The notes under the pieces are model-generated. The model had not been told where the DNA came from, searched no databases, and saw only the letters and a list, made by a program, of their open reading frames with translations. A program made the position numbers and the translations under genes. Positions 9,312 to 26,173 of a stretch of DNA of 64,000 nucleotides are shown here, one piece after another. Location of the stretch: assembly GCA_907165275.2 (NCBI GenBank), contig OU015662.1:10423501-10487500 (forward strand). Reading direction: 5' to 3'. This DNA is from Zygaena filipendulae. Taxonomy: Eukaryota > Arthropoda > Insecta > Lepidoptera > Zygaenidae. Each line of letters begins with the position of its first letter. Within the stretch, counting starts at the first letter, position 1.

Positions 9312-9317
9312 TAGCCC
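9312..9317. repeat. Left target-site duplication TAGCCC
   Basis: Six bases, TAGCCC, directly precede the left terminal repeat. The same six directly follow the right terminal repeat at 26168-26173. A 6-bp duplication is the known signature of Polinton integration by a retroviral-type integrase. Confidence 0.92.
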
Positions 9318-9455
9318 AGTAGGTATATATTGTATGTTCTGGACCACTTCGTTCTTTCGCAATGAGCGAGCACGTGCTCGCTCGCGAAATCACTCCGATG
9401 GTCCAGACCATACAATATATACCAATCAAAATGATTCACTTGTCGGATCGATCAT
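9318..9455 (+). repeat. Left terminal inverted repeat of the Polinton
   Basis: 138 bp, identical by eye to the reverse complement of 26030-26167. It begins AGTAGGTATATATTG; a 5' AG is usual for Polintons. The repeat folds on itself: the arm at 9322-9347 is nearly complementary to 9398-9423, with a perfect 20-bp palindrome centred on CACGTG at 9364-9383 in the loop region. Such a fold-back end could serve protein-primed replication or integrase binding (inference). Confidence 0.92.
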
Positions 9456-9600
9456 GCAAAAACAATTATCGCTCGCGAAATCACTCCGATGGTCCAGACC
9501 ATACAATATATACCAATCAAAATGATTCACTTGTCGGATCGATCATGCAAAAACAATTATCGCTCGCAAAATCATTCCAGTGGTCCAGGCCCTGGACCAC
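9379..9600 (+). repeat. 91-bp tandem repeat starting inside the left TIR
   Basis: The word CGCTCGCGAAATCACTCCG recurs at 9379, 9470 and, with changes, 9561. The spacing is 91 bp and the two first units are almost identical. The first unit overlaps the TIR and the later ones lie inside the element. The right end lacks this extension, so the array is asymmetric. It encodes nothing credible; open frames across it are repeat artefacts. Confidence 0.8.
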
Positions 9601-9779
9601 ACAATCAAAAAGATCTTCATTTGTCAGATGTCAGATCAATTACAAAAGATTTATCTGTGGAATGATAATACAGCGAAATCCATACCATGAAACGATCAGA
9701 CGTCTGGTAGTTCTCATGTTTTGACTTAAAAATAAATGTAACTAACGAAATACCACACTACTGACTTGACACGTGCATC

Positions 9780-10478
9780 ATGAAGTTTGTTAAACAGTCA
9801 CAATCGTTAAATATTGATAATGTTTTTGTCGAAGTAAAAAATACCATGTCACGTCATGGAAGTCTTCTACCTAGCACTGTACGATGCATCATTTGTGGAC
9901 CGTCGAGCTGTGGGAAAACAAATTTGATGATTGGACTACTTTTGCACGAAAACGGGTTACATTATCGAAATGTGTATGTTTATTCTAAAACATTACAACA
10001 ACCAAAATATGTGTTTTTAGAAAAGGTTTTGGAACGAGTTCCAAATGTTTTATTTGAAAAGTATCGTGATAAAGATGAAGTTTTAAGTCTACAAGATGCT
10101 AAACCCTACTCCGTGATTGTATTTGACGACGTTGCATGTGAAAATCAAAATAACATACGAGATTACTTTGCAATGGGCAGACACAAATATATTGATTGTT
10201 TTTATCTCAACCAAACATATAGTAAAATCCCTAAACAGTTAGTGAGAGATAACGCGAATTTAATTATACTTTTTAAACAAGATGAAACCAATATGAAACA
10301 TGTTTATGATGAGCACGTTAATACAGACATGACGTGGGGTCAATTTCGCGAAATGTGTTCAAAGATTTGGATGAGTCCTTACAACTATTTGGTTATAAAC
10401 AAGGATTGTACTAAAAATAATGGTTGCTATAGAAACAAATTAGACACTTTTGTGGTGTTCGACCAACAAAGAACATAA
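9780..10478 (+). CDS. ATP: Polinton A32-like genome-packaging ATPase
   Basis: A 232-aa protein of the FtsK/HerA superfamily, the class that pumps viral DNA into capsids in Polintons, poxviruses and other large DNA viruses. A Walker A motif GPSSCGKT lies at residues 40-47, and a Walker B strand with paired acidic residues (VIVFDD) at 112-117. The length is typical for Polinton ATPases. It is the first gene inside the left end, 325 bp from the TIR. The start is the first ATG of the frame, right after a stop-free leader. It would act in the nucleus or at the assembling capsid. No TATA-initiator pair like those of later genes is visible upstream. The frame is intact. Confidence 0.92.
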   Translation: MKFVKQSQSLNIDNVFVEVKNTMSRHGSLLPSTVRCIICGPSSCGKTNLMIGLLLHENGLHYRNVYVYSKTLQQPKYVFLEKVLERVPNVLFEKYRDKDEVLSLQDAKPYSVIVFDDVACENQNNIRDYFAMGRHKYIDCFYLNQTYSKIPKQLVRDNANLIILFKQDETNMKHVYDEHVNTDMTWGQFREMCSKIWMSPYNYLVINKDCTKNNGCYRNKLDTFVVFDQQRT

Positions 10479-10486
10479 ATAATACC

Positions 10487-10521
10487 TTTAAATAGAGGAA
10501 CGCATGTTTTAAACTTCATTC
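10487..10521 (+). promoter_or_regulatory. TATA plus initiator upstream of the 291-aa gene
   Basis: TTTAAATA at 10487-10494 is followed by an arthropod-type initiator TCATTC at 10516-10521. The presumed +1 A at 10518 lies 31 bp from the first TATA base. The resulting leader to the ATG at 10562 would be 44 nt. Confidence 0.5.
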
Positions 10522-10561
10522 ATTATCGGATGCTAAATCATTAACGACTCGTCCGGTTATA

Positions 10562-11437
10562 ATGGAAAAATCATTAAAAAGACGAATTGTTGATGCTGCA
10601 GAAGCAGTTAAGAAAAAGGTGCGAAAAATGAGAAATGTCGAAATTGAAAATAAACGTGCATTGGAAACCGTGTTCAAGCCGGTCACAGAACCTCTTGCTC
10701 AATTTACGAAAGCTAATGAAAAAGCAACAAAACAAAAGCTGATTGAAAAATCTGAAGGCGACACCAACCATAACACCGGTACTGTTAAAGACACCAAGGA
10801 TGAGAGCAGTGATAATTATTATACAGATAATTCAGAATCTGATTTAGACACAGACCCCTCAGTTTCATCCGTTATTGATACAACTCTCGATGATAAAAAT
10901 ACCTCGTCATGGTCTGTGTCTTCAGAGGCGTTAGATGATGTTGTATTTGGTGTTAGATCAGAAAAAGGAAAACTTATGTTAGGTTCATCTCCTATAACGA
11001 TCGGTGATCGATTTATATCTGTAGCTGGACATAAGTACGCTACCACTCTTGGCTTAAAACAATTGTTGCTTAAAAAAGATATCGATTTAAAATTAATTAC
11101 GGATAGCGACTTGAAAAATTACAAAACTATGTTAATGAACACAAACGCTCACCGTCGAGATTACGATGCAAAAAAACCCATCAAAAGTAATAAAGGACAA
11201 AAATACGTACAAATCATTAGACCTCTGTTTAATATAAAACAAACGAAAGGAGAAGGCTTACCGTCAATGAAAAAAATACGAAAAGATGTCGACTTAGTAT
11301 ACTGGGACGATCCTAATGAATTGGTGGAACGATTAAAACTATTGATAGCATCACGAGAAGCTGGTAACACCGGACTTGACAATGAAATCATTTCTATCAT
11401 AGAAGAATTGCGTGAAAGTGGACTCATTAATGCCTAA
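10562..11437 (+). CDS. Conserved Polinton protein of unknown function (DUF8207-like C-terminal half)
   Basis: 291 aa. The N-terminal third is lysine-rich with a long charged helix. Residues about 60-115 are acidic and serine-rich, probably disordered. From about residue 125 a compact domain follows with GDRF, YATTLGLKQLL, LKNYKTMLMNTNAHRRDYD and a K-G-K/Q-Y segment. I recognise that domain as recurring in invertebrate Polinton proteins; the DUF8207 label is from memory and was not searched. The role is unknown; placement between the ATPase and structural genes suggests a virion or assembly function. An AATAAA overlaps its stop codon, and a TATA-initiator pair precedes it. Confidence 0.75.
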   Translation: MEKSLKRRIVDAAEAVKKKVRKMRNVEIENKRALETVFKPVTEPLAQFTKANEKATKQKLIEKSEGDTNHNTGTVKDTKDESSDNYYTDNSESDLDTDPSVSSVIDTTLDDKNTSSWSVSSEALDDVVFGVRSEKGKLMLGSSPITIGDRFISVAGHKYATTLGLKQLLLKKDIDLKLITDSDLKNYKTMLMNTNAHRRDYDAKKPIKSNKGQKYVQIIRPLFNIKQTKGEGLPSMKKIRKDVDLVYWDDPNELVERLKLLIASREAGNTGLDNEIISIIEELRESGLINA

Positions 11438-11442
11438 ATAAA
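11437..11442 (+). terminator. AATAAA polyadenylation signal overlapping the stop codon
   Basis: AATAAA starts on the last base of the TAA stop of the 291-aa gene (11435-11437). It sits within the AT-rich stretch that also holds the TATA-like box of the next gene. Confidence 0.5.
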
Positions 11443-11443
11443 A

Positions 11444-11477
11444 TAAATATGTGCATTACTAACGATTAGTTTCATTT
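11444..11477 (+). promoter_or_regulatory. TATA-like box plus initiator upstream of the fibre-like gene
   Basis: TAAATAT at 11444-11450 and initiator TCATTT at 11472-11477, with the +1 A at 11474, 30 bp downstream. The ATG at 11518 follows 44 nt later. The box is weaker than those at 13024 and 14161. Confidence 0.4.
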
Positions 11478-11517
11478 TATATTTAGCCTCCCTAAGTAGC
11501 AGGTCCTACCTTAAAAT

Positions 11518-12063
11518 ATGAGTATAGACAAATTTGGTCATCATATTCATAAAAGAATACGTTTGTCAGAGTTTACATTTAATGACAAGGTGTTAATGAA
11601 ATCTGAAAATGGTGATTATGATCTAAAAACAGCTAGACTAAGAGGCATCAAATTTCCTATAGAAGCATACGATGCGGTTAATAAAGAGTATGTCGATCAA
11701 TTACATGATATGATTATAAAAGAACTCAATAACCTTGTTGAAAATATGCGTTCACAAATTATAATTGACATTACAAATACCGTTACATCTACTTTAAAAG
11801 CATACAATGCTTTGTTGAGATCTCATAATGGAGATTATGATTTACAAACAGCTAGACTGAGAGGCATCAAACATCCAGTAGAAGCAGATGATGCTGTTAA
11901 CAAGGAGTATGTAGACCAACTAAACACCAAGATGTTTAAAGAATTCAATGGCCTTATTGACAACTTACGTTCTCAAATTGATGAGTCTACTTTAAAAGCA
12001 ACGTCTTTAGGGTTAGTAAATCAGTTGGAAGAGAAACTTAATAAGAACGGGGTGGACAACTAG
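11518..12063 (+). CDS. Fibre-like repeat protein with two DAVNKEYVD modules
   Basis: 181 aa. Two nearly identical modules lie at residues 32-62 and 105-135. Each runs NGDYDL-TARLRGIK-P, then DAVNKEYVDQL, and is followed by a helical stretch. The motif DAVNK-YVD after a G-I/V-P turn is known from the shafts and collars of phage tail fibres, where it precedes trimeric coiled coils. A trimeric spike or fibre on the particle is therefore a reasonable inference, not a proof. There is no signal peptide. The two modules differ by few residues, so the duplication is fairly young or under strong constraint. The next gene starts 20 bp after the stop. Confidence 0.7.
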   Translation: MSIDKFGHHIHKRIRLSEFTFNDKVLMKSENGDYDLKTARLRGIKFPIEAYDAVNKEYVDQLHDMIIKELNNLVENMRSQIIIDITNTVTSTLKAYNALLRSHNGDYDLQTARLRGIKHPVEADDAVNKEYVDQLNTKMFKEFNGLIDNLRSQIDESTLKATSLGLVNQLEEKLNKNGVDN

Positions 12064-12082
12064 ATTTAAAGTGCATTACAAA

Positions 12083-13018
12083 ATGACAAAACAGGAAGTA
12101 GTCAATGAAATCCACAAAGCCGCTCGAAAAAACTTTACAAGACGTCCTGTTTTTCTTAAGGGAATCGATGATTTGTGGCAAGCCGATTTGATAGATATGC
12201 AATCTCTTCGAAAATATAACAACAACAATAAATATATCCTTATAGTAATAGATTGCTTTACAAAGTATGCCTGGGCTGAACCGTTGAAATCAAAGAAAAA
12301 ACTTGATGTAACTCAAGCTTTTAAACATATTTTAATCCGAAGCCAAAGAAGGCCATACAATTTGCAAACCGATATGGGGAACGAGTTCTACAACGATTCG
12401 TTTCAAAAGCTTATGAAGACGAATAAAATTACCCATTATTCGACGTTTTCTATAAAAAAAGCTTCAATTGTTGAACGTCTTATCAAAACTATAAAGCAAA
12501 GACTGTTCAAACACTTTAGTCTGATTGGGAGTTATAAATGGTCTGACAAAACTTTGAATAATATTATGCAGTCTTATAACACCACAAAACATCGCACCAC
12601 TGGTTTTAAGCCTGCAGAAATTAATAAAACTATAGAACCAGACGTAAAAAGAAATATTAATAAATTACACTCTTTTCCATCTGTACCACAAAAATCTAAA
12701 TTTAAGGCTGGGGATTGCGTTCGTATTAGTAAATACAAAAATTGTTTTGAAAAGGGATATACTCCTAATTGGTCTACAGAATTATTTACTGTAAAGAAAG
12801 TAAATAATACCATTCCACAAACGTACCACATTGAAGATCAACGTAAGCAGCCTATTTTAGGAAGTTTTTATGAACAAGAACTGCAGAAGACTAACTATCC
12901 TAATGTGTATTTAATAGAAAAAGTGTTGAAAAAGAAAGGGAGTAAGATATTCGTTAAATGGTTAGGGTTACCTCCTGATGAAAACAGCTGGATTGATAAA
13001 TCCACATTGTTAAGTTAA
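12083..13018 (+). CDS. INT: Retroviral-type integrase (rve) with C-terminal chromodomain-like module
   Basis: 311 aa from the ATG at 12083; the frame is open slightly upstream, but only from a GTG. The rve catalytic core shows D35 (in WQADLIDM), D97 (in QTDMGNEF) and E131 (in ASIVER), a D-D-33-E arrangement typical of Polinton and Ty3/Gypsy integrases. Residues about 195-265 form the usual small beta domain. The last ~45 residues (IFVKWLGLP...NSWI) match a chromodomain pattern, which in chromointegrases guides insertion to modified chromatin. The 6-bp target duplication around the element fits this enzyme. There is no TATA-initiator pair nearby and only 19 nt separate it from the upstream stop, so it may share that transcript. 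Confidence 0.93.
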   Translation: MTKQEVVNEIHKAARKNFTRRPVFLKGIDDLWQADLIDMQSLRKYNNNNKYILIVIDCFTKYAWAEPLKSKKKLDVTQAFKHILIRSQRRPYNLQTDMGNEFYNDSFQKLMKTNKITHYSTFSIKKASIVERLIKTIKQRLFKHFSLIGSYKWSDKTLNNIMQSYNTTKHRTTGFKPAEINKTIEPDVKRNINKLHSFPSVPQKSKFKAGDCVRISKYKNCFEKGYTPNWSTELFTVKKVNNTIPQTYHIEDQRKQPILGSFYEQELQKTNYPNVYLIEKVLKKKGSKIFVKWLGLPPDENSWIDKSTLLS

Positions 13019-13023
13019 GAAGA

Positions 13024-13060: not shown

Positions 13061-13071
13061 TAATACGAGTC

Positions 13072-13800
13072 ATGCATGGTGGTGGACTCGTTAACAATTT
13101 AATAAATAACTTACCTTTTGAGATTCATATACCTGGGTATAATTACTGTGGACCAGGAACAAAACTTCAGAAACGTTTACAAAGAGGTGATCGCGGGGTT
13201 AACAAGTTGGACGAAGCCTGCATGCACCACGATATCGCCTACGCCAATAACACAGATTTACCTAATCGTCACAAAGCGGATTTACAATTGTTAGACATGG
13301 CTAAAAAGAGGTTAGAAGCAAAGGATGCAGGGAAAGGTGAAAAATTGGTCTCATGGCTGGTTAGTAAAGCGATGAAAGCTAAAGTAAAATCGGGTTGGGG
13401 AGTTAAATCATTCAAACATTTTGTCACGAAAATTCGTTCACATGTTAAAAAGCTAAAACCAAAAAACCGTAAAACGCTGATAAACCTGTCTTATGCAGCT
13501 GCTAAAAGAATGATTCCGCTAGCTCGTCAAATCAAATTACCTCGAGTGATACCAATACCAAAAACCGGAGGAATATTACCACTTATCCCAATATTTGCGG
13601 GTTTATCAGCTCTAGGCGCTCTGGCGGGAGGAGCGTCTGGAATTGCAAAAACTGTGAATGATTATAAATCTGCTCAAAAGAATTTGCAGGAGACAGAGCG
13701 TCATAATAAAACCATGGAGGCTATAGCACTGGGAAAAGGCTTATACATAAAGCCTTACAAAAGTGGGAAAGGTTTATACATAAAAGCTTCAAAAAACTAA
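13072..13800 (+). CDS. Phospholipase A2-domain minor capsid-like protein
   Basis: 242 aa. A viral-type phospholipase A2 core lies at residues 20-60. It has the calcium loop YCGPGT at 25-30 and the catalytic pair H53-D54 in a C-M-H-H-D-I-A-Y context, as in parvovirus VP1 and in Polinton/adintovirus minor capsid proteins, where it opens endosomal membranes during entry. A basic linker follows, then a glycine/alanine-rich hydrophobic stretch at about 165-190 and a short duplicated GKGLYIK tail. There is no signal peptide. The frame ends TAA directly after an in-frame A-AAA-AAC heptamer, beyond which the -1 frame enters the protease. The core residues are intact. Confidence 0.88.
   Translation: MHGGGLVNNLINNLPFEIHIPGYNYCGPGTKLQKRLQRGDRGVNKLDEACMHHDIAYANNTDLPNRHKADLQLLDMAKKRLEAKDAGKGEKLVSWLVSKAMKAKVKSGWGVKSFKHFVTKIRSHVKKLKPKNRKTLINLSYAAAKRMIPLARQIKLPRVIPIPKTGGILPLIPIFAGLSALGALAGGASGIAKTVNDYKSAQKNLQETERHNKTMEAIALGKGLYIKPYKSGKGLYIKASKN
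13791..13797 (+). promoter_or_regulatory. Candidate -1 ribosomal frameshift site (A AAA AAC)
   Basis: The heptamer AAAAAAC is phased A-AAA-AAC in the phospholipase frame and is followed at once by its TAA stop. A -1 slip moves ribosomes into the frame that runs without a stop into the protease, which has no ATG of its own at the start of its conserved domain. The heptamer matches the X-XXY-YYZ rule used by retroviruses and coronaviruses. No strong downstream stem is obvious by eye; a weak one may lie around 13827-13845. Confidence 0.6.
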
Positions 13801-13820
13801 CTACGCTACCTAATCGTGCT

Positions 13821-14165
13821 TTGACAAATGTAGACATTTTGAAGTACGCTGCAAATATTCCGCATTTCCGAGGTGTTTACATGAAAGATGAATTACCCAG
13901 AAGTCCGAGGAAGATTGAATGTGGTATTGTTAACCTAGATGATTCGAAGAATGAAGGAACACATTGGGTAGCATATGCAAAACGAAATAATTATTGTGAA
14001 TACTTTGATAGTTATGGTGATTTGAAACCGCCATTTGAATTAGTGAAGTATTTAAAAAATATGAACATTTTTTATAATTATACAAGATACCAAAAATTTA
14101 ACACTGTTAATTGTGGTCATTTATGTTTAAAATATTTATGGAAATTTTGGAATAAAAAAGTATAA
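13821..14165 (+). CDS. PRO: Adenain-like cysteine protease, probably made by -1 frameshift
   Basis: 114 codons from the start of the conserved domain; the frame is open back through 13797 and beyond. Catalytic residues fit the adenovirus protease/Ulp1 class: H48 in THWVAY, D63 in YFDSYG, Q91, and C98 in NCGHLC. This family matures capsid proteins in adenoviruses and Polintons. The conserved N-terminal part begins at a TTG, and the first in-frame ATG (13881) would cut off about 20 conserved residues. Expression as a C-terminal extension of the phospholipase protein through the heptamer at 13791-13797 is therefore more likely than independent initiation. The length is short but complete for Polinton proteases. 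Confidence 0.88.
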   Translation: MTNVDILKYAANIPHFRGVYMKDELPRSPRKIECGIVNLDDSKNEGTHWVAYAKRNNYCEYFDSYGDLKPPFELVKYLKNMNIFYNYTRYQKFNTVNCGHLCLKYLWKFWNKKV

Positions 14166-14196: not shown

Positions 14197-14201
14197 GCAA
14201 A

Positions 14202-14888
14202 ATGTCTTTAACACTATCAATTACGGGAAACTCATCAATTTTAACTACTTATTACTCTCCCACCCTACAACTTAATGGAGAATATGAGTGTGCTCTGTTA
14301 TATTTATCTACATTTAATTCAATTCCAAATATTGACTATAGAAATAATAAATTTTACTATGGTACTAATGAAGTAATTACTCTACCGGAAGGAGCCTATG
14401 AATTGCAAGATATCAGTGACTATATAAAATCAGAAATAAAAGACGCAACATTTCAACTTCACTGTAATAACAACACATTAAAAATATCCATACACTGCAC
14501 CAAAGATATTGATTTTACCAAGACAGATTCTCTAGGAAATTTGCTGGGCTATGGAAATAAGTTTCTGAAAGCAAATAAATGGCATGTTTCACATCTGCCA
14601 GTGAACATTTTGCCTACGACCGTGGTGAGAGTCGAATGTGATATAGTGAGTGGATCATATATAAACGGTGAACCAAGCCATATTGTTTACGAATTTGCAC
14701 CTAACGTGCCGCCTGGATATAGAATCATCGAAGCCCCTAAAAACGCGATATATTTCCGAATCAATCAAAGTAATATCAACTGCATCCATATTAGATTTTT
14801 GGACATAAATAATAACTTAGTCAATTTACGTGGTGAAGAAGTGCAACTTTTTTTGCATTTGAGAAACATTAGTAAAAATAATGATTGA
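14202..14888 (+). CDS. Penton-like minor capsid protein (single jelly roll)
   Basis: 228 aa, beta-rich, without signal peptide or membrane segment. The C-terminal part carries a pattern I recognise from Polinton and adintovirus penton proteins: VECDIVSGSYINGEPSHIVY, then PPGYRIIEAP, then a closing NLRGEEVQLFLHLR strand. The mid-part has the LGNLLGY element. Single jelly-roll pentons fill capsid vertices. It sits directly before the major capsid gene, as is usual, and its stop overlaps the start of the next frame (ATG at 14881, stop 14886-14888). It is preceded by its own TATA-initiator pair. Confidence 0.85.
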   Translation: MSLTLSITGNSSILTTYYSPTLQLNGEYECALLYLSTFNSIPNIDYRNNKFYYGTNEVITLPEGAYELQDISDYIKSEIKDATFQLHCNNNTLKISIHCTKDIDFTKTDSLGNLLGYGNKFLKANKWHVSHLPVNILPTTVVRVECDIVSGSYINGEPSHIVYEFAPNVPPGYRIIEAPKNAIYFRINQSNINCIHIRFLDINNNLVNLRGEEVQLFLHLRNISKNND

Positions 14889-15105
14889 TTACAATAAATA
14901 CGTGCCTCGAAAATCAAAAACTATCAGTTCTGCGCGAGTAACCCTCAACAAAACATCTCCTTATAGGAAAAAAAATAAGTTAATTCGAAAATCAAAAATC
15001 GTCAGTTCTGCGCGAGTAACCCTCAACAAAACATCTTGTAGGAAAAAAAATAAGTTAAATAAAGATAATAAAGCATTCCTTAAATTAATCGGATTATTAA
15101 AATGA
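14881..15105 (+). CDS. Small basic protein with internal duplication
   Basis: 74 aa, about a third lysine or arginine. Two copies of a module RKSK-(T/I)-(I/V)-SSARVTLNKTS occupy residues about 10-27 and 37-54, each followed by RKKNKL. The composition resembles the DNA-binding core peptides of adenoviruses (an analogy, not homology). It overlaps the penton stop by 8 bases and the major capsid start by 4 (ATGA), so it is wedged between two capsid genes. The duplication extends to the DNA level. It could be a nucleoprotein or a spacer; the function is unproven. Confidence 0.65.
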   Translation: MIDYNKYVPRKSKTISSARVTLNKTSPYRKKNKLIRKSKIVSSARVTLNKTSCRKKNKLNKDNKAFLKLIGLLK

Positions 15106-16316
15106 ATATCTTAGACGTTTTATCTGTTCCATCTTACGACAATTCCGTTGAAGGGGTCGAATTCCATTCATATAAACCGTATGTAACAAGTTTCAACAGG
15201 AATGATGAAATACGCATTCCGATCAACCAACAAGATTTGTACATATTGCCATCAGCGAGCACTTTATACTTGGAAGGACAAGTTGATGTTAAAAAACGAG
15301 ATACTAAAGAGCAAGTAAACACTGTAAATTTTACAAATAATTCTCTTCTTTACCTATTTCAAGATATTCGGTATGAGTTAAACGGAGTTGAAATAGATAA
15401 AATAAAAAACGCAGGAATAAGTACTACAATGAAAGCGTTGGTTTCAATGAATGAGAGTGAATCTAAAATGTCAAGAGCCTGGGGCTGGGATATAGGCGGT
15501 ATTACAAATACTCACCGAGGCAGTTTCGCAGTTTCCATTCCCCTCAAAAATATACTTGGCTTCGCTGAAGATTATCAAAAAGTTGTGATCAATTGTCGGC
15601 ACGAATTGATATTGTTACGAAGCAACACAAATTTAAACGCTGTTAAACTTAACAACGATGAGGTTATTGAAGACGTAATTATAAATAAAATAATTTGGCG
15701 GGTACCACACGTAAGAGTTTCAGATAGAGAAAAGATTAATCTTCTCAAGTATTTAGAAAAAGACCGACCACTCCAGATTGTATTTAGAAATTGGGATTTG
15801 TATGAATATCCAGCTTTACCTAAAACCACTAAACATACGTGGTCAATAAAAACTGCATCTCAAATAGAAAAACCACGATATGTAATTATTGGATTGCAAA
15901 CGAACCGAAAGAACAATGCAAGTTCTGATATGGCGCAGTTCGATCATTGTAACCTAAGTAACGTCAAGGTGTACCTTAACTCAACTTACTTTCCATATGA
16001 AAATTTAAATATAAACTTTGCAAATGACAGATTTGCTTTAATATACGAGCAATACGCAAGATTTCAACAGTCGTATTATGGAAGGCGATCAGAAGCTTTG
16101 CTAAGCCCTAAGCAATTCAAAGATTTAACGCCATTGTTCGTTATCGATTGCTCCAGACAAATTGACAATTTGAAGTCAGGGCCTGTTGTCGACGTACGCG
16201 TTGAACTCGAAGCAGATTCTGAGATACCTGATCAAACTTCAGCCTACTGTCTTATACTCAACGATTGCATTATCGAGTATAAACCACTCAGCAGCACGGT
16301 GAAAAAACTATCATGA
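15102..16316 (+). CDS. MCP: Major capsid protein (double jelly-roll, hexon-like)
   Basis: 404 aa. The N-terminus (SYDNSVEGVEFHSYKPY, then NNDEIRIP-like NDEIRIPINQQDLY) and the following FQDIRYELNGVEIDK element are characteristic of Polinton and adintovirus major capsid proteins, which form the hexagonal lattice. The second half shows QFDHCNLSNVKVYLNSTYFPYENL and a C-terminal CLILNDCIIEYKPLS strand. The length is within the family range and there is no internal stop. It starts within the last codons of the 74-aa gene (ATGA), and its own TGA overlaps the ATG of the following gene in the same way. No promoter-like pair is seen directly upstream. Confidence 0.9.
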   Translation: MNILDVLSVPSYDNSVEGVEFHSYKPYVTSFNRNDEIRIPINQQDLYILPSASTLYLEGQVDVKKRDTKEQVNTVNFTNNSLLYLFQDIRYELNGVEIDKIKNAGISTTMKALVSMNESESKMSRAWGWDIGGITNTHRGSFAVSIPLKNILGFAEDYQKVVINCRHELILLRSNTNLNAVKLNNDEVIEDVIINKIIWRVPHVRVSDREKINLLKYLEKDRPLQIVFRNWDLYEYPALPKTTKHTWSIKTASQIEKPRYVIIGLQTNRKNNASSDMAQFDHCNLSNVKVYLNSTYFPYENLNINFANDRFALIYEQYARFQQSYYGRRSEALLSPKQFKDLTPLFVIDCSRQIDNLKSGPVVDVRVELEADSEIPDQTSAYCLILNDCIIEYKPLSSTVKKLS

Positions 16317-16813
16317 ATCCTGACATTATAATAGCCGATCTTCAAGGTTTTAAAGATGCGAATAATAAATTCATTGTTAAAGAAGTGGCAATTGCAACAA
16401 AATACCAAACACAAACATTTTTAGTTAAACCACCATACTCCTATAATTTTTTAACATTCGAAGAAAAAAAGCAAGTTCAGTGGTTGCAACGTAACAGAGG
16501 TATTTACTGGAATGAAGGCTATATAGATTATAGAGAGTTTCAACGAGTCATCGCTCCTTATTTAGAACATAAAAAGGTCCTAGTAAAAGGAATCGAAAAA
16601 ATCAAGTGGATCAAAGAATTATGCTCTAATTGCGAAGTTATAGATTTAAGCAAGAAACTTGAAGAAATAAGCTTTTCAAACTTTTCTACGTTACATAAAG
16701 TGTACTGTACTGATTTATTCAACCATAACTGTGTTAATCATAAGAAATATTGTGCGTTAAAAAATGTAACTTGTTTAAAATTATGTTATTTAGAAAACTA
16801 TTTTAGTAATTGA
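16313..16813 (+). CDS. Unknown 166-aa Polinton protein
   Basis: Starts in an ATGA overlap with the major capsid stop. The N-terminal pattern (ADLQGFK...FIVKEVAI) and the mid-part VLVKGIEKIKWIKEL look like alternating strands and helices of an RNase H-like fold. I recall a similar ORF in other insect Polintons, but no function can be assigned. The C-terminus is rich in cysteine and histidine (five Cys in the last ~35 residues). The position at the end of the capsid block suggests co-expression with the structural genes. Confidence 0.65.
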   Translation: MNPDIIIADLQGFKDANNKFIVKEVAIATKYQTQTFLVKPPYSYNFLTFEEKKQVQWLQRNRGIYWNEGYIDYREFQRVIAPYLEHKKVLVKGIEKIKWIKELCSNCEVIDLSKKLEEISFSNFSTLHKVYCTDLFNHNCVNHKKYCALKNVTCLKLCYLENYFSN

Positions 16814-17611: not shown

Positions 17612-17623
17612 GATCTGAAACAA

Positions 17624-18205: not shown

Positions 18206-21200
18206 TTAAGCAGTACAACCAAATATTGACTGATTACCCCAGGCGATGGTTGTCACCTTATCTGATTCTAACAACCGCTTATCATCATTGGCTGAAAGAG
18301 CAATTTTATTTACGGATTGAGTAAATATTTCATGCTTGATTGTTTTAAACAAAACGTTTCTTTTTCGAACGACATCACAATTGTATAAGACATGTTTATA
18401 GTCTGATGCATGCAAATTTTTAATTACATTTCGTTTTGTTCCTTTTGCTTTTTTAATCGTTCTGTCTAAAGTTTTAATACAATAAAGCTTTGACCTTAAC
18501 CCTACAAACTCCTTAACTATCTTACCACCCATTTCGTCCTTAAACAACCCAGGAATCTTTTTGTTTACAATTGGCAAACCAAACTTGTTATTGTAATCGT
18601 AACTGCTAGTATCAAAATATTTTAGAAAATTCATTTTAAAATCTCTGTAAACATCTTCTGTCTGTACATTGTAAATAAAACTATCAGTATCAGTATAACA
18701 TACTTCAATACGATTTTCGTAAAATGGCTTTATTACTGAGTAATGGAAGTCATACATATGACTTTTAGAAAGTTCGAGTACAGCAAATCCAATGTAGATC
18801 GGCTTGTTTAGAACAACCCTTGAACGTTTCATTTGTATTGCTACTAGGTCATCAGAAAATATTGATGCGCTGTGAAAATTTGGGTTCGCTATCAACTTCT
18901 CGGCACCAATAAATTTTTTTGTTTGGTTATTCATGTCTGACCACTTATTTACCAATCGTACATCTACCCATTGTTCTGTGTTTTCCAATGTTTTTCCAAA
19001 TATACTATTATTTAACAATTTAAAAAAATCTTGTTCAAAAACAGATTGAGCTCTTTGACGCAGCTCAGTATTAAGGTCTATATATTGTTTTAAAAAATTA
19101 CTTTGTTTGAAAGTTATAGCTCGATGGATTTTTCTCAAAACCAAACCATGTTCTAAGCATTTTTTAAGGTGAACGTAATGAATAACGTAGTGATATTTGT
19201 CATATAAGTTGGGTATTAATTTTTTTGTTTTTCCTGTGGGAGATTTAATTTTTTCAGGACAAAATGGAAAATCATTGTGTTGGGTGTGTAAATTTGGAGG
19301 ATAAAATAAATCAACCTCAAGAATAAAGCCATTTTCAGCGTCATCCGTAATGTGTATTATATTTAACTCTAACTTCTTAATTTCACTATCGCTTAAAAAT
19401 CTGAAGTCTGAATGAGGTAATGTTTGACACATACTATATCCGTACAAATTATTACAATCTAAATACATAATGTACGAGCTTGGCGTAGAGGGGTCAAAAG
19501 TTTCCAGATATCTATGATTAGCTTTAGCGTGTCGTTTGGAGCACATGCAAACGCCACCTCTAATACCTTGTTGTATCAAACGAAAAATTTCTAAATCACT
19601 TATAAGTTCCAACCGAACGCGAGTTTTTAAAAGCATTGCATCAAATGAAAGACTTGGTGCAGTAAGATAAAAGGCGGGATCGAGTTGATAATATTGTTTA
19701 CATGTTAATCTAAAATTTTCATAGATATCAGTCAACAAAAGGACGTCTGACTCGAGATACAAATCAGTAAATTGACCCATATTATTAATAGAAAACTCAA
19801 GCCACATCGCTCGAGCGTGTTCGTAATCTTCATCGGTAATTGACTCATTCGTAAGCGAGTTAAAAAAACGGTCTTTAGACGGTAAACAGGTATCAGCATA
19901 TCGTTCCCAACTAGACATGTAATCATATGGATACACTCCTTTTCGAGTGAGCAGATTAAAGTGTTTTTCATCAGGATAGTAAAATTTTAAGTATCTAAAT
20001 TCATCCTTTTTCATGGTTGCGGCTAACTTTTCTAAGCTTGTCCCCAAAAACTTGAATGAATCCACAAATCTTATTTGAAAATAATCTTGTCCAGAAATCG
20101 GAATAAACTTTGTGAAAGAAATATAGTTTTCTTTTGTTTTCGGTATTACCTTAATAGACCCGGGGGCTTTTCCTAATTCTTTGATAAAAAGATGACAATC
20201 ATAACCCGACAGGTTATGAAAGACAACAGGCAAGAACTTTGGTACTTGATATTTTAAATTACAGTAACTATGAGCAGCGCCACGGAACTGTCCTGTCAAA
20301 TGACAATGATCACGAACTTTATCTACTGTTATTAGACCCTCGCAAATGTGACAAGTCTCTGCGTTCTCATAATTATAAGCATCAGTATCAGTAAAAACCA
20401 TAGGCACGTTTTTATTTAATATTTCGCTGATTTTCTTTGCATCGTCACAAATAGATTTAACAAACTTATCTGCACAATCACGTCCTCTATATGAGGTTAT
20501 GTGGTTGTATCGTGAATCTACTGTACAAACGAGGTGATAGGCAAAAGCTACAGGTACATGTCGCTGTTGAGTCACTGTAGAAGATTTTAACGGATCGGGT
20601 TCGCAACTATCGTAAGTTTCGAGCATAGCTTCAAAATCTGCATAAACAACAAAAGGAACGTTTTGCTTTCGGTCATAATTTTTAAATTCTATAAAGGAAC
20701 CTTTTGGAGGTAATTCGGTAGCCACACCTCCGCAGATATGAGAACATAACTGATCGTTCGAGTTGAAAAATTGTAAACAATGATCGCAAAAGTGCAATTT
20801 GTTACAATGCTTAGTAATTTGACTTCTAACAAGACGCGACAGATCCTTTATCAAACAGTAATGCGACATATCACCTTCTTCAAGATAAAGTAAGTGAATA
20901 ACTTTTTTGTTCAATGCGTCTGATTTGTAAAGTGGACCGACCACTAACTTCTTATCATTTAAACCGTATACAAAAATACATATATGCGGATTGTTCTGTT
21001 CAAACCGAGCGATGTCTGAGAAACTCATTGGGAACGATAAGCCATCCACGTTCAACACGTCATTAAATTTAGGATAAGATGAAACTCTATCAGAATGACG
21101 TTGAGCAGGATACAAAGCAGCAGTTACTGACCATAAAAAACAAAAATTATCATTATTCTTTATATTTAAACAGGCTTTTTTTGATTTGATTAAAGCCGGC

Positions 21201-21727
21201 AACTCAATGAAACTTGAACCACGCAAAGGCTGATATTTGTTTATGTTAACTTCTAAATGGGAATTATGCAAAAATGTCCAACCACTATCACGCTCTTGAA
21301 ATTCACTTGCTTTTTTGATCAAACTGGTTTTTACCTCGAAAAATAAAGTATCAAGATTGCAATTTTGATAAAGAGTAAAATTTTTCGTGCCAAATGATTT
21401 TATCTCTTGGGAATCATTTTTTAACAAGAGAAAAACCCCAAAATATTCGAAATTGGCCTTGACACAGTGATGTTGCTTAAGTGACATTTCAATTAACGAC
21501 TTGATTTTAGTTTGTATATGATCTAAAAAACTTTCTATTGAAGTCCGATCCTCAGAATCCGATGAGGTAACTTTGTATGAGGCTATTCGGTTGCGAAAAG
21601 CGGAATTAATTTTGAAGATACCTTCACTTAATGTAGAATAATTTTTATTTTTATGATCAGTACTTCGCAAGTGACCTATCCAACGAACACGACTAACAAA
21701 AACTTTACAATCTTCGCAATACGGCAT
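18206..21727 (-). CDS. POLB: Protein-primed family B DNA polymerase
   Basis: 1173 aa, uninterrupted. The N-terminus has a C2H2-like finger (C4, C7, H19, H25). The 3'-5' exonuclease motifs are visible: Exo I DFE at D364, Exo II YD at D510, Exo III with D661. Between Exo I and Exo II lies a C-x2-C ... DHCHLTGxxRGxxHxxCN module resembling a treble-clef recombination endonuclease fold, common in this polymerase group. Polymerase motif A has D757 (DCNNLYG), motif B has N907-S908 (KLLNNSIFGK), and motif C reads YTDTD at 1011-1015. All catalytic residues are present, so the enzyme should be able to replicate the linear element from its protein-capped ends. An initiator-like TCATTC lies shortly upstream without a clear TATA. 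Confidence 0.96.
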   Translation of the reverse strand: MPYCEDCKVFVSRVRWIGHLRSTDHKNKNYSTLSEGIFKINSAFRNRIASYKVTSSDSEDRTSIESFLDHIQTKIKSLIEMSLKQHHCVKANFEYFGVFLLLKNDSQEIKSFGTKNFTLYQNCNLDTLFFEVKTSLIKKASEFQERDSGWTFLHNSHLEVNINKYQPLRGSSFIELPALIKSKKACLNIKNNDNFCFLWSVTAALYPAQRHSDRVSSYPKFNDVLNVDGLSFPMSFSDIARFEQNNPHICIFVYGLNDKKLVVGPLYKSDALNKKVIHLLYLEEGDMSHYCLIKDLSRLVRSQITKHCNKLHFCDHCLQFFNSNDQLCSHICGGVATELPPKGSFIEFKNYDRKQNVPFVVYADFEAMLETYDSCEPDPLKSSTVTQQRHVPVAFAYHLVCTVDSRYNHITSYRGRDCADKFVKSICDDAKKISEILNKNVPMVFTDTDAYNYENAETCHICEGLITVDKVRDHCHLTGQFRGAAHSYCNLKYQVPKFLPVVFHNLSGYDCHLFIKELGKAPGSIKVIPKTKENYISFTKFIPISGQDYFQIRFVDSFKFLGTSLEKLAATMKKDEFRYLKFYYPDEKHFNLLTRKGVYPYDYMSSWERYADTCLPSKDRFFNSLTNESITDEDYEHARAMWLEFSINNMGQFTDLYLESDVLLLTDIYENFRLTCKQYYQLDPAFYLTAPSLSFDAMLLKTRVRLELISDLEIFRLIQQGIRGGVCMCSKRHAKANHRYLETFDPSTPSSYIMYLDCNNLYGYSMCQTLPHSDFRFLSDSEIKKLELNIIHITDDAENGFILEVDLFYPPNLHTQHNDFPFCPEKIKSPTGKTKKLIPNLYDKYHYVIHYVHLKKCLEHGLVLRKIHRAITFKQSNFLKQYIDLNTELRQRAQSVFEQDFFKLLNNSIFGKTLENTEQWVDVRLVNKWSDMNNQTKKFIGAEKLIANPNFHSASIFSDDLVAIQMKRSRVVLNKPIYIGFAVLELSKSHMYDFHYSVIKPFYENRIEVCYTDTDSFIYNVQTEDVYRDFKMNFLKYFDTSSYDYNNKFGLPIVNKKIPGLFKDEMGGKIVKEFVGLRSKLYCIKTLDRTIKKAKGTKRNVIKNLHASDYKHVLYNCDVVRKRNVLFKTIKHEIFTQSVNKIALSANDDKRLLESDKVTTIAWGNQSIFGCTA

Positions 21728-23325: not shown

Positions 23326-23330
23326 GAACA

Positions 23331-23399
23331 CATTGATTTGCGTTATACGATTGCAAAATAAAAGTAGATTTTCGAAATATAGGTAACCAAAATTAAAAC
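23331..23399. repeat. Direct repeat, left of the IAP gene
   Basis: An imperfect ~68-bp match to 24274-24340 in the same orientation: CATTGA(T/A)TT(G/A)CGTTAT, CGATTGCA(A/G)AATA, TTTTCGAAATATA and AAAATT(A/G)AAAC. The two copies bracket the inhibitor-of-apoptosis gene. This copy lies just upstream of the short first exon of the minus-strand spliced gene, so it may also be promoter sequence. Confidence 0.7.
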
Positions 23400-23585
23400 C
23401 TCGAAAACAGTAACTAAGTATTTGTTCCTTGAAATAAAAATATGCACAAGAGCATTTGTGTTTATAATTTCCGCTGATATCCCCTCCACGCCTCTTTCTA
23501 TTATTTTACCTACCATAAATTGCACCGACTGCCCCGACAAACTTTGAGCGTGACTCATTTGTATACAGCGTACTACACCGATAAG

Positions 23586-24158
23586 ATGGCTAAAACTCCT
23601 AGCGCCATGTCGAGTGAGGAGGAACGTTTAAACTCATTTGTAAATTGGCCACTGGCATACTTGTCACCGGAAAGTTTGGCAAAAAGTGGTTTCTATTTCA
23701 TAGGTCGCGGTGACGAAGTGCGTTGTGCGTTCTGCAATGTCGAGATAATGAATTGGTTGCAACTCGACGAACCTGACCAAGAACACAGGCGGTGGTCACC
23801 GCGGTGTCCACTATTTCGCTCCATTGCTGATACATCATTTGATCGCGACGAGTGCGGCATGTTCGGTGCAGATACCAATTATATAGACCCCCACGTTAAG
23901 ACGCTTAGGGAACATGCGCAAAAAGAGCACCACCACAACAACGTTGTCGTCAACACCACTACGCAAGTTCCTCACGAAACTGACGAGAAAATGTGCCAGG
24001 TAGACAAGTGTTGTAAAGTTTGTTTCGATGAAGAGTGCAATGTATGTTTGACGCCGTGCGGACATGTGGTTGCATGCGCCGCGTGTAGTTTTTCTATTCA
24101 TAATTGTCCAGTGTGTAGACGTCCTATTGTAAATGTTGTAAGGTTGTATTTCTCTTGA
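23586..24158 (+). CDS. IAP: Inhibitor of apoptosis protein, one BIR plus RING (Polinton cargo)
   Basis: 190 aa from the ATG at 23586; the frame extends upstream only from non-ATG codons. A single BIR domain occupies residues about 14-80 with zinc ligands C47, C50, H67 and C74. A C-terminal C3HC4 RING has C143, C146, C158, H160, C164, C167, C174 and C177 in textbook spacing. This architecture is that of insect and baculovirus IAPs, which bind caspases through the BIR and act as E3 ubiquitin ligases through the RING, blocking cell suicide. Inside a Polinton it is accessory cargo, probably captured from an insect or a large DNA virus, and would favour survival of the replicating cell. Both zinc sites are complete. 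Direct repeats flank the gene. Confidence 0.93.
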   Translation: MAKTPSAMSSEEERLNSFVNWPLAYLSPESLAKSGFYFIGRGDEVRCAFCNVEIMNWLQLDEPDQEHRRWSPRCPLFRSIADTSFDRDECGMFGADTNYIDPHVKTLREHAQKEHHHNNVVVNTTTQVPHETDEKMCQVDKCCKVCFDEECNVCLTPCGHVVACAACSFSIHNCPVCRRPIVNVVRLYFS

Positions 24159-24273
24159 ATGAAAAACAATAATTTAAAGTATTTTTTTGGTAAATACCTG
24201 TTATGACATTTTTGTTTGGATTAAACACGCTAAATATATATTATCGTTGTGTGTATTATTTATTCCCGATGTA

Positions 24274-24340
24274 CATTGAATTACGTTATGCGATTGCAGA
24301 ATACAAGTATATTTTTCGAAATATAACCGAAAATTGAAAC
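24274..24340. repeat. Direct repeat, right of the IAP gene
   Basis: Second copy of the ~68-bp repeat at 23331-23399, 115 bp past the IAP stop codon. Gaps and substitutions amount to roughly a fifth of positions by eye. Confidence 0.7.
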
Positions 24341-25486
24341 TTAAAAAATGTAAATGTACCTACTTGTTAAAATAAAATTTCAAACTTATTAAGGAATGGA
24401 CTAGATTCATAAGTTTCTCATTAATATGCCGCATCTATTATGTGTCGAGTGCAATGGTTCAATTATTTCCATTGTAACAAGTTACTGCATGCCAAGCAAA
24501 TACTTACTTATCGGTATCACCAATGATACTATTCTCATGTATTACTACTACCAGTTATTTCCTCGGTTTCGCTCACATGAATTCCAAACTCTCTCAGACA
24601 TTTTTTTTTTTACGGAATGATAAGTAGGTATGGCATTTTTGAACCCAAAGTATAAGTAGGTATATCAAATTTTATGAAAAACCTTTCAACAATTCTGAAG
24701 ATTGTTTGGATGGATAGAGATAAAAAAATATAGAACATTTAAATGGTTATTAATGTTTTTACAAATGCAAATAACACTCAGTTGAGTTTTTTAGAACAGA
24801 GTTATCTCGATATTACAGACAGAAAATCGTATTTTAGTTATATTTAGATCCAACTTGATGGGAAAGCGACGGCGCGCGATGACATTTCAGCGAATTTTAT
24901 AAATAATAAACATGCGCGGACCGTGGAACCGTGGTGATCAGCACTTTAGAGTTATGAGAACAATAAGTATACGTACTGATTGCAGAAACAGTACCTACAA
25001 ACGATAAGTGCTTGAAGTCATAAAAATTATATTTTATACCTCTTAAATATATTATAAGCAAATATTTTTTGTAAACCGCGGGAAATAGTTCCAGCTTTAA
25101 GAACTCGTTATCACTGTCATAATTTCCAAATAGACCAAAATTCATGAGTTTTCGTATTTCGTTTTTCTACATAATAATTTATGTTTTGCGTTAAATTCTC
25201 AGATTAACTGTATGTTTATTAATGCAACGTAATAAAGACATACATGAACCATTTAAACAGAAACATGTGTGGTTATTACATATTTGCTAACCGTACCGAA
25301 TGTCAAAGGTAAGTAAAAAAATAAAGATAAGTAGTAAGCGAAGCGAAGGGAAACATACAGTACAGTACAGTCTCTGCTGTTGCGATTTAGACATTGCGAG
25401 TGCTTAGAATCTTTGTGTTCACTGCGTAAAGTTATGGTGTCCTCGAGTCAATCTGATCACAAAATATGTGCTTTATTTATAACTCA

Positions 25487-25640
25487 GTGACGACTTGAGC
25501 AATCTAGCCCTAGTTTCTGATTTACAGAAGATCGTTGAGCCAATCTGGTGCCGAATTTGATTCGGCGACGACTTGAGCAATCTAGCCTGAAAATCTGAAA
25601 CTTTGAAGATCGTTGAGCCAATCTGGTACTGAGTTTAAAT
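25487..25640. repeat. 78-bp direct repeat with ~39-bp sub-units
   Basis: GACGACTTGAGCAATCTAGCC at 25489 and 25567 and GATCGTTGAGCCAATCTGGT in each unit show two tandem 78-bp copies. Each is itself two related half-units sharing TTGAGC-AATCTRG. A further partial unit (CGAGTCAATCTG) lies just upstream near 25445. Position near one end of the element suggests a binding-site array, but there is no proof. Confidence 0.7.
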
Positions 25641-26029
25641 ATATGCTTTACATAACTGTGGAGAGACACCTGACAATATAGTGAACATAATAGTTTCTAA
25701 CATAAGTATAATTCAATTATTAAATTCAAAGTTTTTACGTATAACTTGTATGTGCTTATGTGTGATGAAAATACTTAATAGTTCACATGATGGTTCCGCG
25801 GTATACAGGCAGATAGTTCAGGTATGTTTTTATTTATTCATAATTTGGTAACTAAACATGCAAACGGGTTATTATTGTTTGTTTTTTGTTGTACGATCGA
25901 CATGTGAATCTTTGCATGATCCATATGACAGATACATTTTTTAAATCAGTATATTATAATAATTATTGTTTTCACCGCTCCTGGCGAAAGAACGACATTC
26001 GTTGTTTTGTTGCATGGTTGATCAAATAA

Positions 26030-26167
26030 ATGATCGATCCGACAAGTGAATCATTTTGATTGGTATATATTGTATGGTCTGGACCATCGGAGTGATTTCG
26101 CGAGCGAGCACGTGCTCGCTCATTGCGAAAGAACGAAGTGGTCCAGAACATACAATATATACCTACT
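26030..26167 (-). repeat. Right terminal inverted repeat of the Polinton
   Basis: Reverse complement identical by eye to 9318-9455 over 138 bp, including the CACGTG-centred palindrome. Identity ends abruptly at ATCAT, after which the two subterminal regions differ. Confidence 0.92.
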
Positions 26168-26173
26168 TAGCCC
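26168..26173. repeat. Right target-site duplication TAGCCC
   Basis: TAGCCC directly after the terminal ACCTACT, matching 9312-9317 exactly. Confidence 0.92.

What the first reader, a model, noticed from the sequence alone, without database searches (positions are those of the whole stretch)
9312..26173. Intact Polinton with identical ends and a perfect 6-bp duplication
The sequence shows matching TAGCCC flanks, 138-bp TIRs that read as identical, and all core genes (polymerase, integrase, ATPase, protease, penton, major capsid) without a stop or frameshift. Old insertions normally decay, so this copy is probably young and could be mobile or produce particles.
Basis: partly seen in the sequence, partly recalled or inferred. 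Interest (0 to 1): 0.88.

Follow-up and report, generated by a model that had tools for sequence, protein, structure and literature searches.

The report
Recently spreading Polinton with frameshifted protease
A moth or butterfly genome carries many nearly identical copies of a 17-kb virus-like mobile element that spread very recently, and a conserved "slippery" site suggests that it makes its maturation protease by shifting the ribosome's reading frame at the end of a capsid gene.

Summary
It belongs to a large recent burst in a lepidopteran genome. All 40 scored TIR hits (of 259 candidates) are identical. All 103 scored capsid-gene hits (of 173) are 99-100% identical, 102 without a stop. All 18 identical-TIR end pairs carry perfect 6-bp TSDs, each different (window included). 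Three other copies differ from the window at 1-2 of about 6,150 compared bases.

Two claims need correction. The penton is assigned by position only. The protease frame has no start codon before its conserved N-terminus and lies at -1 to the upstream PLA2/minor-capsid gene, which ends in A_AAA_AAC directly before its stop. Of 120 listed homologues of that protein, 115 end in Lys-Asn and 5 run 1-2 residues past it. I infer -1 frameshifting that fuses the protease to the PLA2 protein. This is untested; some relatives have possible starts of their own. I saw it described in no paper searched. The TIR also folds into a T-shaped hairpin (z -9).

The parts
9312..9317 (.). target site duplication TAGCCC, left
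   Evidence: same 6 bp at 26168-26173
9318..9455 (+). left terminal inverted repeat, 138 bp; folds as a T-shaped hairpin (arms 9322-9346 / 9399-9423, inner palindrome about 9364-9383)
9469..9559 (+). tandem second copy of a 91-bp subterminal unit (first at 9378-9468)
   Evidence: 100% identity
9780..10478 (+). ATPase (ATP), A32-like packaging ATPase, 232 aa
   Evidence: Pfam Pox_A32 23.9 bits, cut-off 22.8; P-loop motif
10562..11437 (+). ORF2, 291 aa, function unknown; positionally like ORF2 of Sf Mavericks
   Evidence: position; no family match
11518..12063 (+). fibre-like protein, 181 aa with an internal duplication; not among the 8 small ORFs listed for Sf Mavericks
   Evidence: PHROGs tail/tail-fibre families, best E 1.9e-8; no PDB sequence match
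12083..13018 (+). integrase (RVE), 311 aa from ATG, chromodomain-like C-terminus
   Evidence: Pfam rve 43.3 bits; Chromo 23.1 bits, under its 25.1 cut-off; D,D,E motifs
13072..13800 (+). CAP: PLA2-domain minor capsid protein, 242 aa, ends ...SKN*
   Evidence: Pfam Phospholip_A2_4 51 bits; calcium-binding and HD motifs
13791..13797 (+). slippery heptamer A_AAA_AAC in CAP phase, directly before the CAP stop codon (13798-13800)
   Evidence: same site in 20 of 20 other copies fetched; Lys-Asn end in homologues
13791..14165 (+). PRO: adenain-like cysteine protease in the -1 frame to CAP, 124 codons from the heptamer; no Met before residue 58 of the stop-to-stop frame 13710-14165
   Evidence: adenain by profile E 2.1e-5 and by fold E 1.9e-6
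14202..14888 (+). ORF6, presumed penton, by position only
   Evidence: no family match; fold model uninformative
15102..16316 (+). major capsid protein (double jelly roll), 404 aa
   Evidence: Pfam DJR-like_dom 379 bits; 80% identical to Spodoptera moth adintovirus 1 hexon
16313..16813 (+). ORF8, 166 aa, function unknown
   Evidence: position as Sf Maverick ORF8
18206..21727 (-). type B DNA polymerase, 1173 aa, with endonuclease VII-like and OTU-like stretches
   Evidence: exonuclease and polymerase motifs read in the frame (motif names recalled); Endonuclease_7 below cut-off
23586..24158 (+). inhibitor-of-apoptosis protein, one BIR plus RING, 190 aa from ATG
   Evidence: Pfam BIR 69 bits, zf-C3HC4_3 41 bits; open in 17 of 20 fetched pieces
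26030..26167 (-). right terminal inverted repeat, 138 bp
26168..26173 (.). target site duplication TAGCCC, right

Best explanation
This is an integrated polintovirus (Polinton/Maverick, adintovirus; family Eupolintoviridae) in a lepidopteran, probably ditrysian. It belongs to a family that has recently multiplied to at least about a hundred near-identical copies. Shown: precise insertion with 6-bp TSDs at many different sites, near-zero divergence between some copies, and open frames for the core genes. Inferred from the family: PolB copies the linear element from its ends and the RVE integrase inserts it. The mainly synonymous differences between copies in capsid, protease and presumed penton genes suggest, but do not prove, passage through particles. 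In this family the protease most likely has no start of its own. Ribosomes reading the PLA2/minor-capsid gene reach A_AAA_AAC just before its stop; a fraction slip back one base and continue into the protease frame, making a CAP-PRO fusion. That would fix the ratio of protease to CAP and carry the protease into the assembling particle with the membrane-active protein, as retroviral Gag-Pro does and much as adenain is tied to pVI in adenoviruses (both comparisons recalled). The slippage and this role are inferred.
For: Burst: 40 of 40 scored TIR hits identical; 103 of 103 scored MCP hits 99-100% identical, 102 without a stop; 39 of 39 scored PolB hits at least 99% identical, 38 without a stop; 18 of 18 identical-TIR pairs with different perfect TSDs (window included) and 5 of 5 further copies with both ends found, of ten tried. 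One insertion interrupts a dispersed repeat whose uninterrupted paralogue matches the joined flanks across the junction (94%). Copies C6, C8 and C11 differ from the window by 2, 1 and 2 substitutions over about 6,150 bp. Selection, synonymous/nonsynonymous against the window, summed over 8 of the 20 copies: CAP 28/13, PRO 12/5, ORF6 22/7; MCP over 12 copies 57/37, PolB over 8 copies 85/39; shared changes are counted repeatedly. Frameshift: PRO is -1 to CAP with A_AAA_AAC in phase at the CAP stop. 115 of 120 listed CAP homologues end in KN, the other 5 have KN plus 1-2 residues. The residue before KN is one that an NNA codon can encode in 120 of 120. In 5 of 6 testable CAP/PRO pairs the two protein readings fit one DNA only if the site is A_AAA_AA(C/T). 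64 of 120 PRO homologues are predicted only from a Met inside the conserved region; for 54 of them that Met lies after the first helix and strand of the fold. 20 of 20 other copies fetched have the same site and no Met between it and the conserved internal Met.
Against: No RNA structure beyond chance lies just downstream of the heptamer (z -0.75 to 0.42; pseudoknots not tested). Of 120 listed PRO homologues, 36 have a Met close before the conserved LPxRxL and 18 more have a predicted start farther upstream, overlapping the CAP tail, so an own start is possible in them. One of 20 other copies (C52) has a Met in the -1 frame upstream of the heptamer. One of six pairs was inconsistent, perhaps a chance match of contig length. 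The NNA control is mixed: at the 2nd to 8th residues before KN, 27, 31, 8, 107, 2, 3 and 32 of 120 are not NNA-encodable, so low values also occur at conserved positions. No DNA of another species could be read. No expression or particle data exist here. Homologues are related, so counts are not independent.
Confidence: 0.76

Rival explanations
1. PRO is translated without frameshifting: by reinitiation after the CAP stop, from a start inside the CAP tail, or from a non-AUG start codon. The conserved Lys-Asn tail of CAP would then be a protein signal.
For: 36 of 120 listed PRO homologues have a Met close before the conserved LPxRxL and 18 more have a predicted start overlapping the CAP tail; the frames abut; non-AUG starts are known in parvoviruses (recalled).
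Against: 64 of 120 homologues have no predicted start before the conserved region. The residue before KN is NNA-encodable in 120 of 120. Two-frame readings force A_AAA_AAY in 5 of 6 pairs.
Confidence: 0.22
2. Transcriptional slippage on the A6 run adds or drops a base, so that part of the mRNA encodes an in-frame CAP-PRO fusion.
For: An in-frame CAP-PRO fusion protein exists in the database (P0225). A runs can cause polymerase slippage (recalled).
Against: Six A is short for this (recalled). The X_XXY_YYZ phase is not required by this model.
Confidence: 0.04
3. The family spreads only inside germ-line nuclei as a transposon; capsid genes are passengers.
For: The copies whose ends were fetched are integrated; no particle data; some copies carry broken genes (C31c broken in CAP, C47 without the CAP start and with a shortened PRO); in 3 of 12 MCP copies nonsynonymous changes outnumber synonymous ones.
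Against: Capsid, protease and presumed penton differences between copies are mainly synonymous, 102 of 103 scored MCP frames have no stop, and the IAP gene is open in 17 of 20 pieces.
Confidence: 0.3
4. The window holds one old, preserved relic or a chimera of several elements.
For: None found for the window copy.
Against: Three other copies are nearly identical over all pieces compared; perfect TSD.
Confidence: 0.01

Closest known systems
Sf Maverick 2 of Spodoptera frugiperda (PMC5803895, passages seen) and Spodoptera moth adintovirus 1
   Same: Same order of small ORFs with POLB on the opposite strand, as described in the passages. MCP 80% identical. The S. frugiperda CAP (P0253) has a PLA2 domain, is 78% identical and also ends in Lys-Asn.
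   Different: Here complete ends, TSDs and a genome-wide burst are shown. There is an extra fibre-like ORF and an IAP gene. The paper gives PRO as a separate ORF; in the passages seen there is no mention of a CAP-PRO frameshift.
Adintoviruses as surveyed in PMC11071296 (passages seen)
   Same: PolB, RVE integrase, DJR capsid, adenain; the survey notes anti-apoptotic genes in most mammal-associated members, possible slippery sites near the end of some penton ORFs, and potential hexon-adenain fusions.
   Different: The junction here is between the PLA2 minor capsid gene and the protease, with an A_AAA_AAC site at the stop codon whose conservation is inferred from many relatives.
Retroviral gag-pro -1 frameshifting (recalled)
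   Same: Heptamer of the A_AAA_AAC type, protease in the -1 frame of a structural gene.
   Different: DNA element; an adenain-type cysteine protease; heptamer abuts the stop; no strong downstream RNA structure found.
Parvovirus and bidnavirus termini (recalled)
   Same: Terminal sequence folds into a T-shaped hairpin; PLA2 domain of the parvovirus VP1 type.
   Different: Integrating element with DJR capsid; no rolling-hairpin initiator was recognised among the ORFs. The hairpin's role is unknown.

Membership tests
Polinton/Maverick (Eupolintoviridae, adintovirus) | terminal inverted repeats and 6-bp target site duplication | tested here: met
   18 of 18 identical-TIR pairs (window included)
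[quoted passage not shown]
   polymerase and exonuclease motifs in one 1173-aa frame; no Pfam polymerase match, so the call rests on motifs, size and position; protein priming itself not tested
Polinton/Maverick (Eupolintoviridae, adintovirus) | RVE integrase | tested here: met
   rve 43.3 bits, cut-off 32.6; D,D,E motifs
Polinton/Maverick (Eupolintoviridae, adintovirus) | C-terminal chromodomain of the integrase | tested here: inconclusive
   Chromo 23.1 bits against a cut-off of 25.1, E 6.9e-5
Polinton/Maverick (Eupolintoviridae, adintovirus) | double-jelly-roll major capsid protein | tested here: met
   379 bits
Polinton/Maverick (Eupolintoviridae, adintovirus) | penton (single jelly roll) | tested here: inconclusive
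   ORF6 by position
Polinton/Maverick (Eupolintoviridae, adintovirus) | packaging ATPase and adenain-like protease | tested here: met
   Peptidase_C5 itself below its cut-off
-1 programmed ribosomal frameshifting | X_XXY_YYZ heptamer in phase with the upstream gene | tested here: met
-1 programmed ribosomal frameshifting | downstream frame lacks its own start | tested here: inconclusive
   met in the window and in 19 of 20 other copies; of 120 listed relatives 64 lack a start before the conserved region, 36 have a Met close before it, 20 begin farther upstream
-1 programmed ribosomal frameshifting | stimulatory RNA structure downstream | tested here: not met
   pseudoknots not tested
-1 programmed ribosomal frameshifting | fusion product observed | not testable with these tools
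   needs mass spectrometry or ribosome profiling; works-like claim only

The most novel reading that the evidence does not exclude
In lepidopteran polintoviruses the adenain-type protease is made by -1 ribosomal frameshifting as a C-terminal extension of the PLA2 membrane-lysis capsid protein, at an A_AAA_AAC site whose adjacent stop codon may itself supply the pause. This would be a Gag-Pro strategy arrived at independently by a double-stranded DNA virus, in a family whose recent burst would let it be tested in living insects.
Probability: 0.68. Interest if true: 0.78.

Novelty: new variant of a known kind. Interest (0 to 1): 0.73.

Why it matters
Whether animal Polintons still form virions is a long-standing question. 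A host with at least about a hundred near-identical copies, capsid differences that look selected, and intact frames is a setting in which that can be observed directly. A frameshift-made protease would explain how the protease is dosed and brought into the particle, link the membrane-lysis protein to the protease as in adenoviruses (recalled), and give a simple molecular sign (Lys-Asn end of CAP beside a start-less PRO) to look for in other lineages.

Tried and rejected
Protease start lost in this copy only: rejected, since 20 of 20 other copies fetched have no Met between the heptamer and the internal Met; one (C52) has a Met in the -1 frame upstream of the heptamer. Copy C31c as a diverged test of heptamer conservation: rejected, because its differences lie upstream of a breakpoint near 13,490 and the rest is the common sequence. 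In one search the CAP of C52 looked broken; this was a register error of mine, and one search shows 242 residues. Viral contig scans with the MCP, the PRO alignment and the MCP alignment gave no confirmed relative, so no foreign DNA could be compared. Downstream RNA structure for the frameshift: nothing beyond chance. Penton fold: uninformative. Fibre-like ORF in PDB: no match. Rfam: no match in the window at gathering threshold. My first TIR comparison for small contigs reported 'differs' because stretches were too short; the repeat showed a TIR variant with a one-base length difference in the inner hairpin. The PRO classes were loose (its 'KKL' class counted 22, three of them wrong); one search recounted them, and there P0234 fell in the wrong class and is moved by hand (64/36/20 of 120). 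In one search contig lengths were typed for 53 of 120 PRO and 41 of 120 CAP rows; 37 pairs matched by length, of which 6 could be tested. The mutation rate used for dating (2.9e-9 per site per generation) is recalled. The host was placed in ditrysian Lepidoptera from the Met-Ile-Gln tRNA order of contig C56 (meaning recalled) and the moth and butterfly names of close relatives.
Full report
What is there. The window holds a complete integrated element from 9318 to 26167 (16,850 bp). Its two terminal inverted repeats match over 138 of 138 bases and it is flanked by TAGCCC on both sides. On the left a 91-bp subterminal unit is present twice in tandem with 100% identity.

Genes. In order: ATPase, ORF2, a fibre-like ORF, RVE integrase, a PLA2-domain minor capsid protein (CAP), an adenain-like protease (PRO), ORF6, the double-jelly-roll major capsid protein (MCP), ORF8, and on the other strand a 1173-aa DNA polymerase B; farther right an inhibitor-of-apoptosis gene with one BIR and a RING. 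Profile matches are clear for rve, PLA2, DJR capsid, BIR and RING, and just above cut-off for the ATPase. The polymerase has no Pfam polymerase match and is named from its motifs. PRO is below the Pfam cut-off for the adenovirus endoprotease and is named from a profile match to adenain (E 2.1e-5) and from its predicted fold (best Foldseek hit adenain, E 1.9e-6). ORF6 is a penton only by position. The order, with POLB on the opposite strand, is that of Sf Maverick 2 from Spodoptera frugiperda (PMC5803895, passages seen). The fibre-like ORF is not among the ORFs listed there. The MCP is 80% identical to the hexon of Spodoptera moth adintovirus 1, and 84% to the best unnamed hit. Eupolintoviridae is the current family name as given in a passage of PMC12567637.

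Host. The window lies in an unnamed assembly of 365.9 Mb in 56 contigs. Contig C56 is 15,550 bp, 20% GC, with 25 mitochondrial tRNA calls including Met, Ile and Gln in the order typical of ditrysian Lepidoptera (the meaning of the order is recalled).

A recent burst. With the 138-bp TIR as query, 40 of 259 candidate places were scored and all 40 are identical over 138 bases. They include 18 pairs in inverted orientation 16.7 to 24.0 kb apart. I fetched both ends of the 17 pairs other than the window: 17 of 17 have a perfect 6-bp TSD, all different; with the window this is 18 of 18. Of ten further copies on small contigs both ends were found in 5, and 5 of 5 have a TSD; in the other 5 one end was not found in the stretch. 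With the MCP as query, 103 of 173 candidates were scored: all match over essentially the whole protein (one from residue 3) at 99-100% identity, and 102 have no stop. With PolB, 39 of 238 were scored, all at least 99% identical, 38 without a stop. These are lower bounds. For one copy (C19) the joined host flanks match an uninterrupted paralogous repeat elsewhere in the window across the junction at 94%, an empty-site paralogue.

Age. Identity of the window's own TIRs only bounds their divergence at about 2%. Comparison with other copies is sharper. In 20 other copies the CAP-PRO-ORF6 piece (1818 bp) differs from the window by 0 to 15 substitutions in 19, and the twentieth (C31c) is broken at about 13,490. 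Copies C6, C8 and C11 show 0 of 1818 there, 2, 1 and 2 substitutions in the right-arm piece of about 1830 bp (C11 also two short gaps), and none in the 2.6-kb accessory piece, which overlaps the right-arm piece by about 100 bp. At a recalled rate of 2.9e-9 per site per generation this is tens of thousands of generations, so ongoing activity is not excluded. The right-arm piece was badly out of register in several other copies, so it was used only for those three. Some copies are decayed: of 20, CAP is full length with its start in 18 (not in C47 and C31c) and PRO is open over 124 codons in 19 (not in C47, 116).

Selection. Synonymous/nonsynonymous counts against the window, summed over 8 of the 20 copies, are 28/13 in CAP, 12/5 in PRO and 22/7 in ORF6. 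The clearest single case is C30: 5/1, 2/1, 5/1 and 9/1 in MCP, 4/3 in PolB. Without selection about three nonsynonymous per synonymous change are expected (recalled). Of 12 MCP copies compared, 7 have more synonymous than nonsynonymous changes, 2 have equal numbers and 3 have more nonsynonymous, among them the broken C31c with 5/10; of 8 PolB copies, 7 have more synonymous and 1 equal numbers. IAP comes in at least three length forms (188, 190, 193 aa). It is open in 17 of 20 fetched pieces (one of them cut by the end of the stretch), frameshifted in 1 and not in the stretch in 2. dN was below dS in all six comparisons of four IAP alleles. These comparisons share history and are not independent. 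They suggest that the virion genes and IAP have mattered for spread.

The protease has no start of its own here. The PRO frame runs from 13710 to 14165 but its first Met is residue 58, while the conserved region and the predicted first helix and strand of the adenain-like fold lie before it (residues 40-58 at pLDDT about 90). The frame is -1 to CAP. CAP ends TCA AAA AAC TAA, so the heptamer A_AAA_AAC sits in phase directly before the stop (13791-13797). All 20 other copies fetched have the same site and no Met between it and the internal Met; one (C52) has a Met in the -1 frame upstream of it. By base composition an in-phase A_AAA_AAC somewhere in the 30 overlapping codons has a probability of about 1%.

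Conservation in relatives. Of the 120 CAP homologues listed (out of 2652 found), 115 end exactly in Lys-Asn and the other 5 have Lys-Asn followed by one or two residues. The residue before Lys-Asn is Ser, Pro, Thr, Gln, Leu, Ala, Glu or Lys, all encodable by a codon ending in A, in 120 of 120. At the 2nd to 8th residues upstream the numbers not so encodable are 27, 31, 8, 107, 2, 3 and 32 of 120; the low ones are conserved hydrophobic or glycine positions. Of the 120 PRO homologues listed (out of 319), 64 are predicted only from a Met inside the conserved region, 36 have a Met within 8 residues before it, and 20 begin farther upstream; of these 20, 19 read Lys-Lys-Leu at the place where heptamer and stop would lie (18 with a predicted start of their own overlapping the CAP tail, and P0225, an in-frame CAP-PRO fusion) (P0234 moved by hand). 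Predicted starts may be ATG, GTG or TTG. Where CAP and PRO lie on contigs of equal length and PRO extends upstream (6 pairs), one DNA can encode both readings in 5, and then the site must be A_AAA_AAC or A_AAA_AAT; the sixth pair does not fit. The published S. frugiperda CAP (P0253) also ends in Lys-Asn.

Mechanism. The simplest reading is -1 ribosomal frameshifting that makes a CAP-PRO fusion. CAP carries the PLA2 catalytic motifs and is probably the membrane-lysis protein. Joining the protease to it would dose the protease and carry it into particles. The duplicated Gly-x-Gly-Leu motif near the CAP end is a possible cleavage site (inference). No downstream RNA structure beyond chance was found. 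The stop codon directly after the heptamer may provide the pause instead (inference). Own starts, by reinitiation or otherwise, remain possible, above all in the relatives that have a nearby Met.

Ends. Each TIR folds as a T-shaped hairpin of -38.2 kcal/mol against -13.3 for shuffles (z -9.0). A second TIR variant in the same genome keeps the outer arms and the inner stem while differing in the inner loop and by one base in length. Its role is unknown; recognition by the replication machinery is the natural guess.

Known and new. Membership in the Polinton/adintovirus family is met on the tested features except the penton and the integrase chromodomain, which are inconclusive. In the ten paper searches and the passages read, a 2024 survey mentions possible slippery sites in penton ORFs and potential hexon-adenain fusions (PMC11071296). 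I saw no description of a CAP(PLA2)-PRO frameshift; the adintovirus founding paper is not held. Enrichment of Mavericks on a lepidopteran W chromosome is in print (PMC11064298, passages). In this genome 67 of 103 scored MCP copies lie on the small contigs C30-C56, about 12 Mb at most if the four contigs whose length I did not fetch are no larger than their neighbours, roughly 55 times the density elsewhere; whether these are W-linked was not tested.

Noticed in passing
contigs C30-C56 of G000: 67 of 103 scored MCP copies lie on small contigs totalling about 12 Mb at most (four lengths assumed), about 55-fold denser than on the large contigs; possibly W chromosome fragments.
   Followed up: partly
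window 9318-9455 and 26030-26167: Each TIR folds as a T-shaped hairpin (z -9.0), reminiscent of parvovirus termini (recalled); two TIR variants exist in the genome.
   Followed up: partly
window 23586-24158: BIR-RING inhibitor-of-apoptosis cargo gene in at least three length forms (188, 190, 193 aa), open in 17 of 20 fetched pieces.
   Followed up: partly
window 11518-12063: Fibre-like ORF with phage tail-fibre profile matches and an internal duplication, not listed in Sf Mavericks.
   Followed up: partly
window 17001-17109 and 17197-17305; 25484-25558 and 25562-25636; 14907-14975 and 14985-15053: Short direct repeats inside the element, function unknown.
   Followed up: no
window 28545-33842: Host-side ORFs up to 841 aa; four of them scanned gave no Pfam match; possibly another repeat or gene.
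   Followed up: no
starts of contigs C33, C34, C35, C45, C46, C48, C52: MCP hits lie within 4-9 kb of the contig start, so these contigs probably begin inside or near a copy; C35 and C45 carry MCP at identical contig coordinates.
   Followed up: no
G000:C50 copy at 228086: A 711-aa ORF lies where the accessory region is expected, probably a nested insertion.
   Followed up: no
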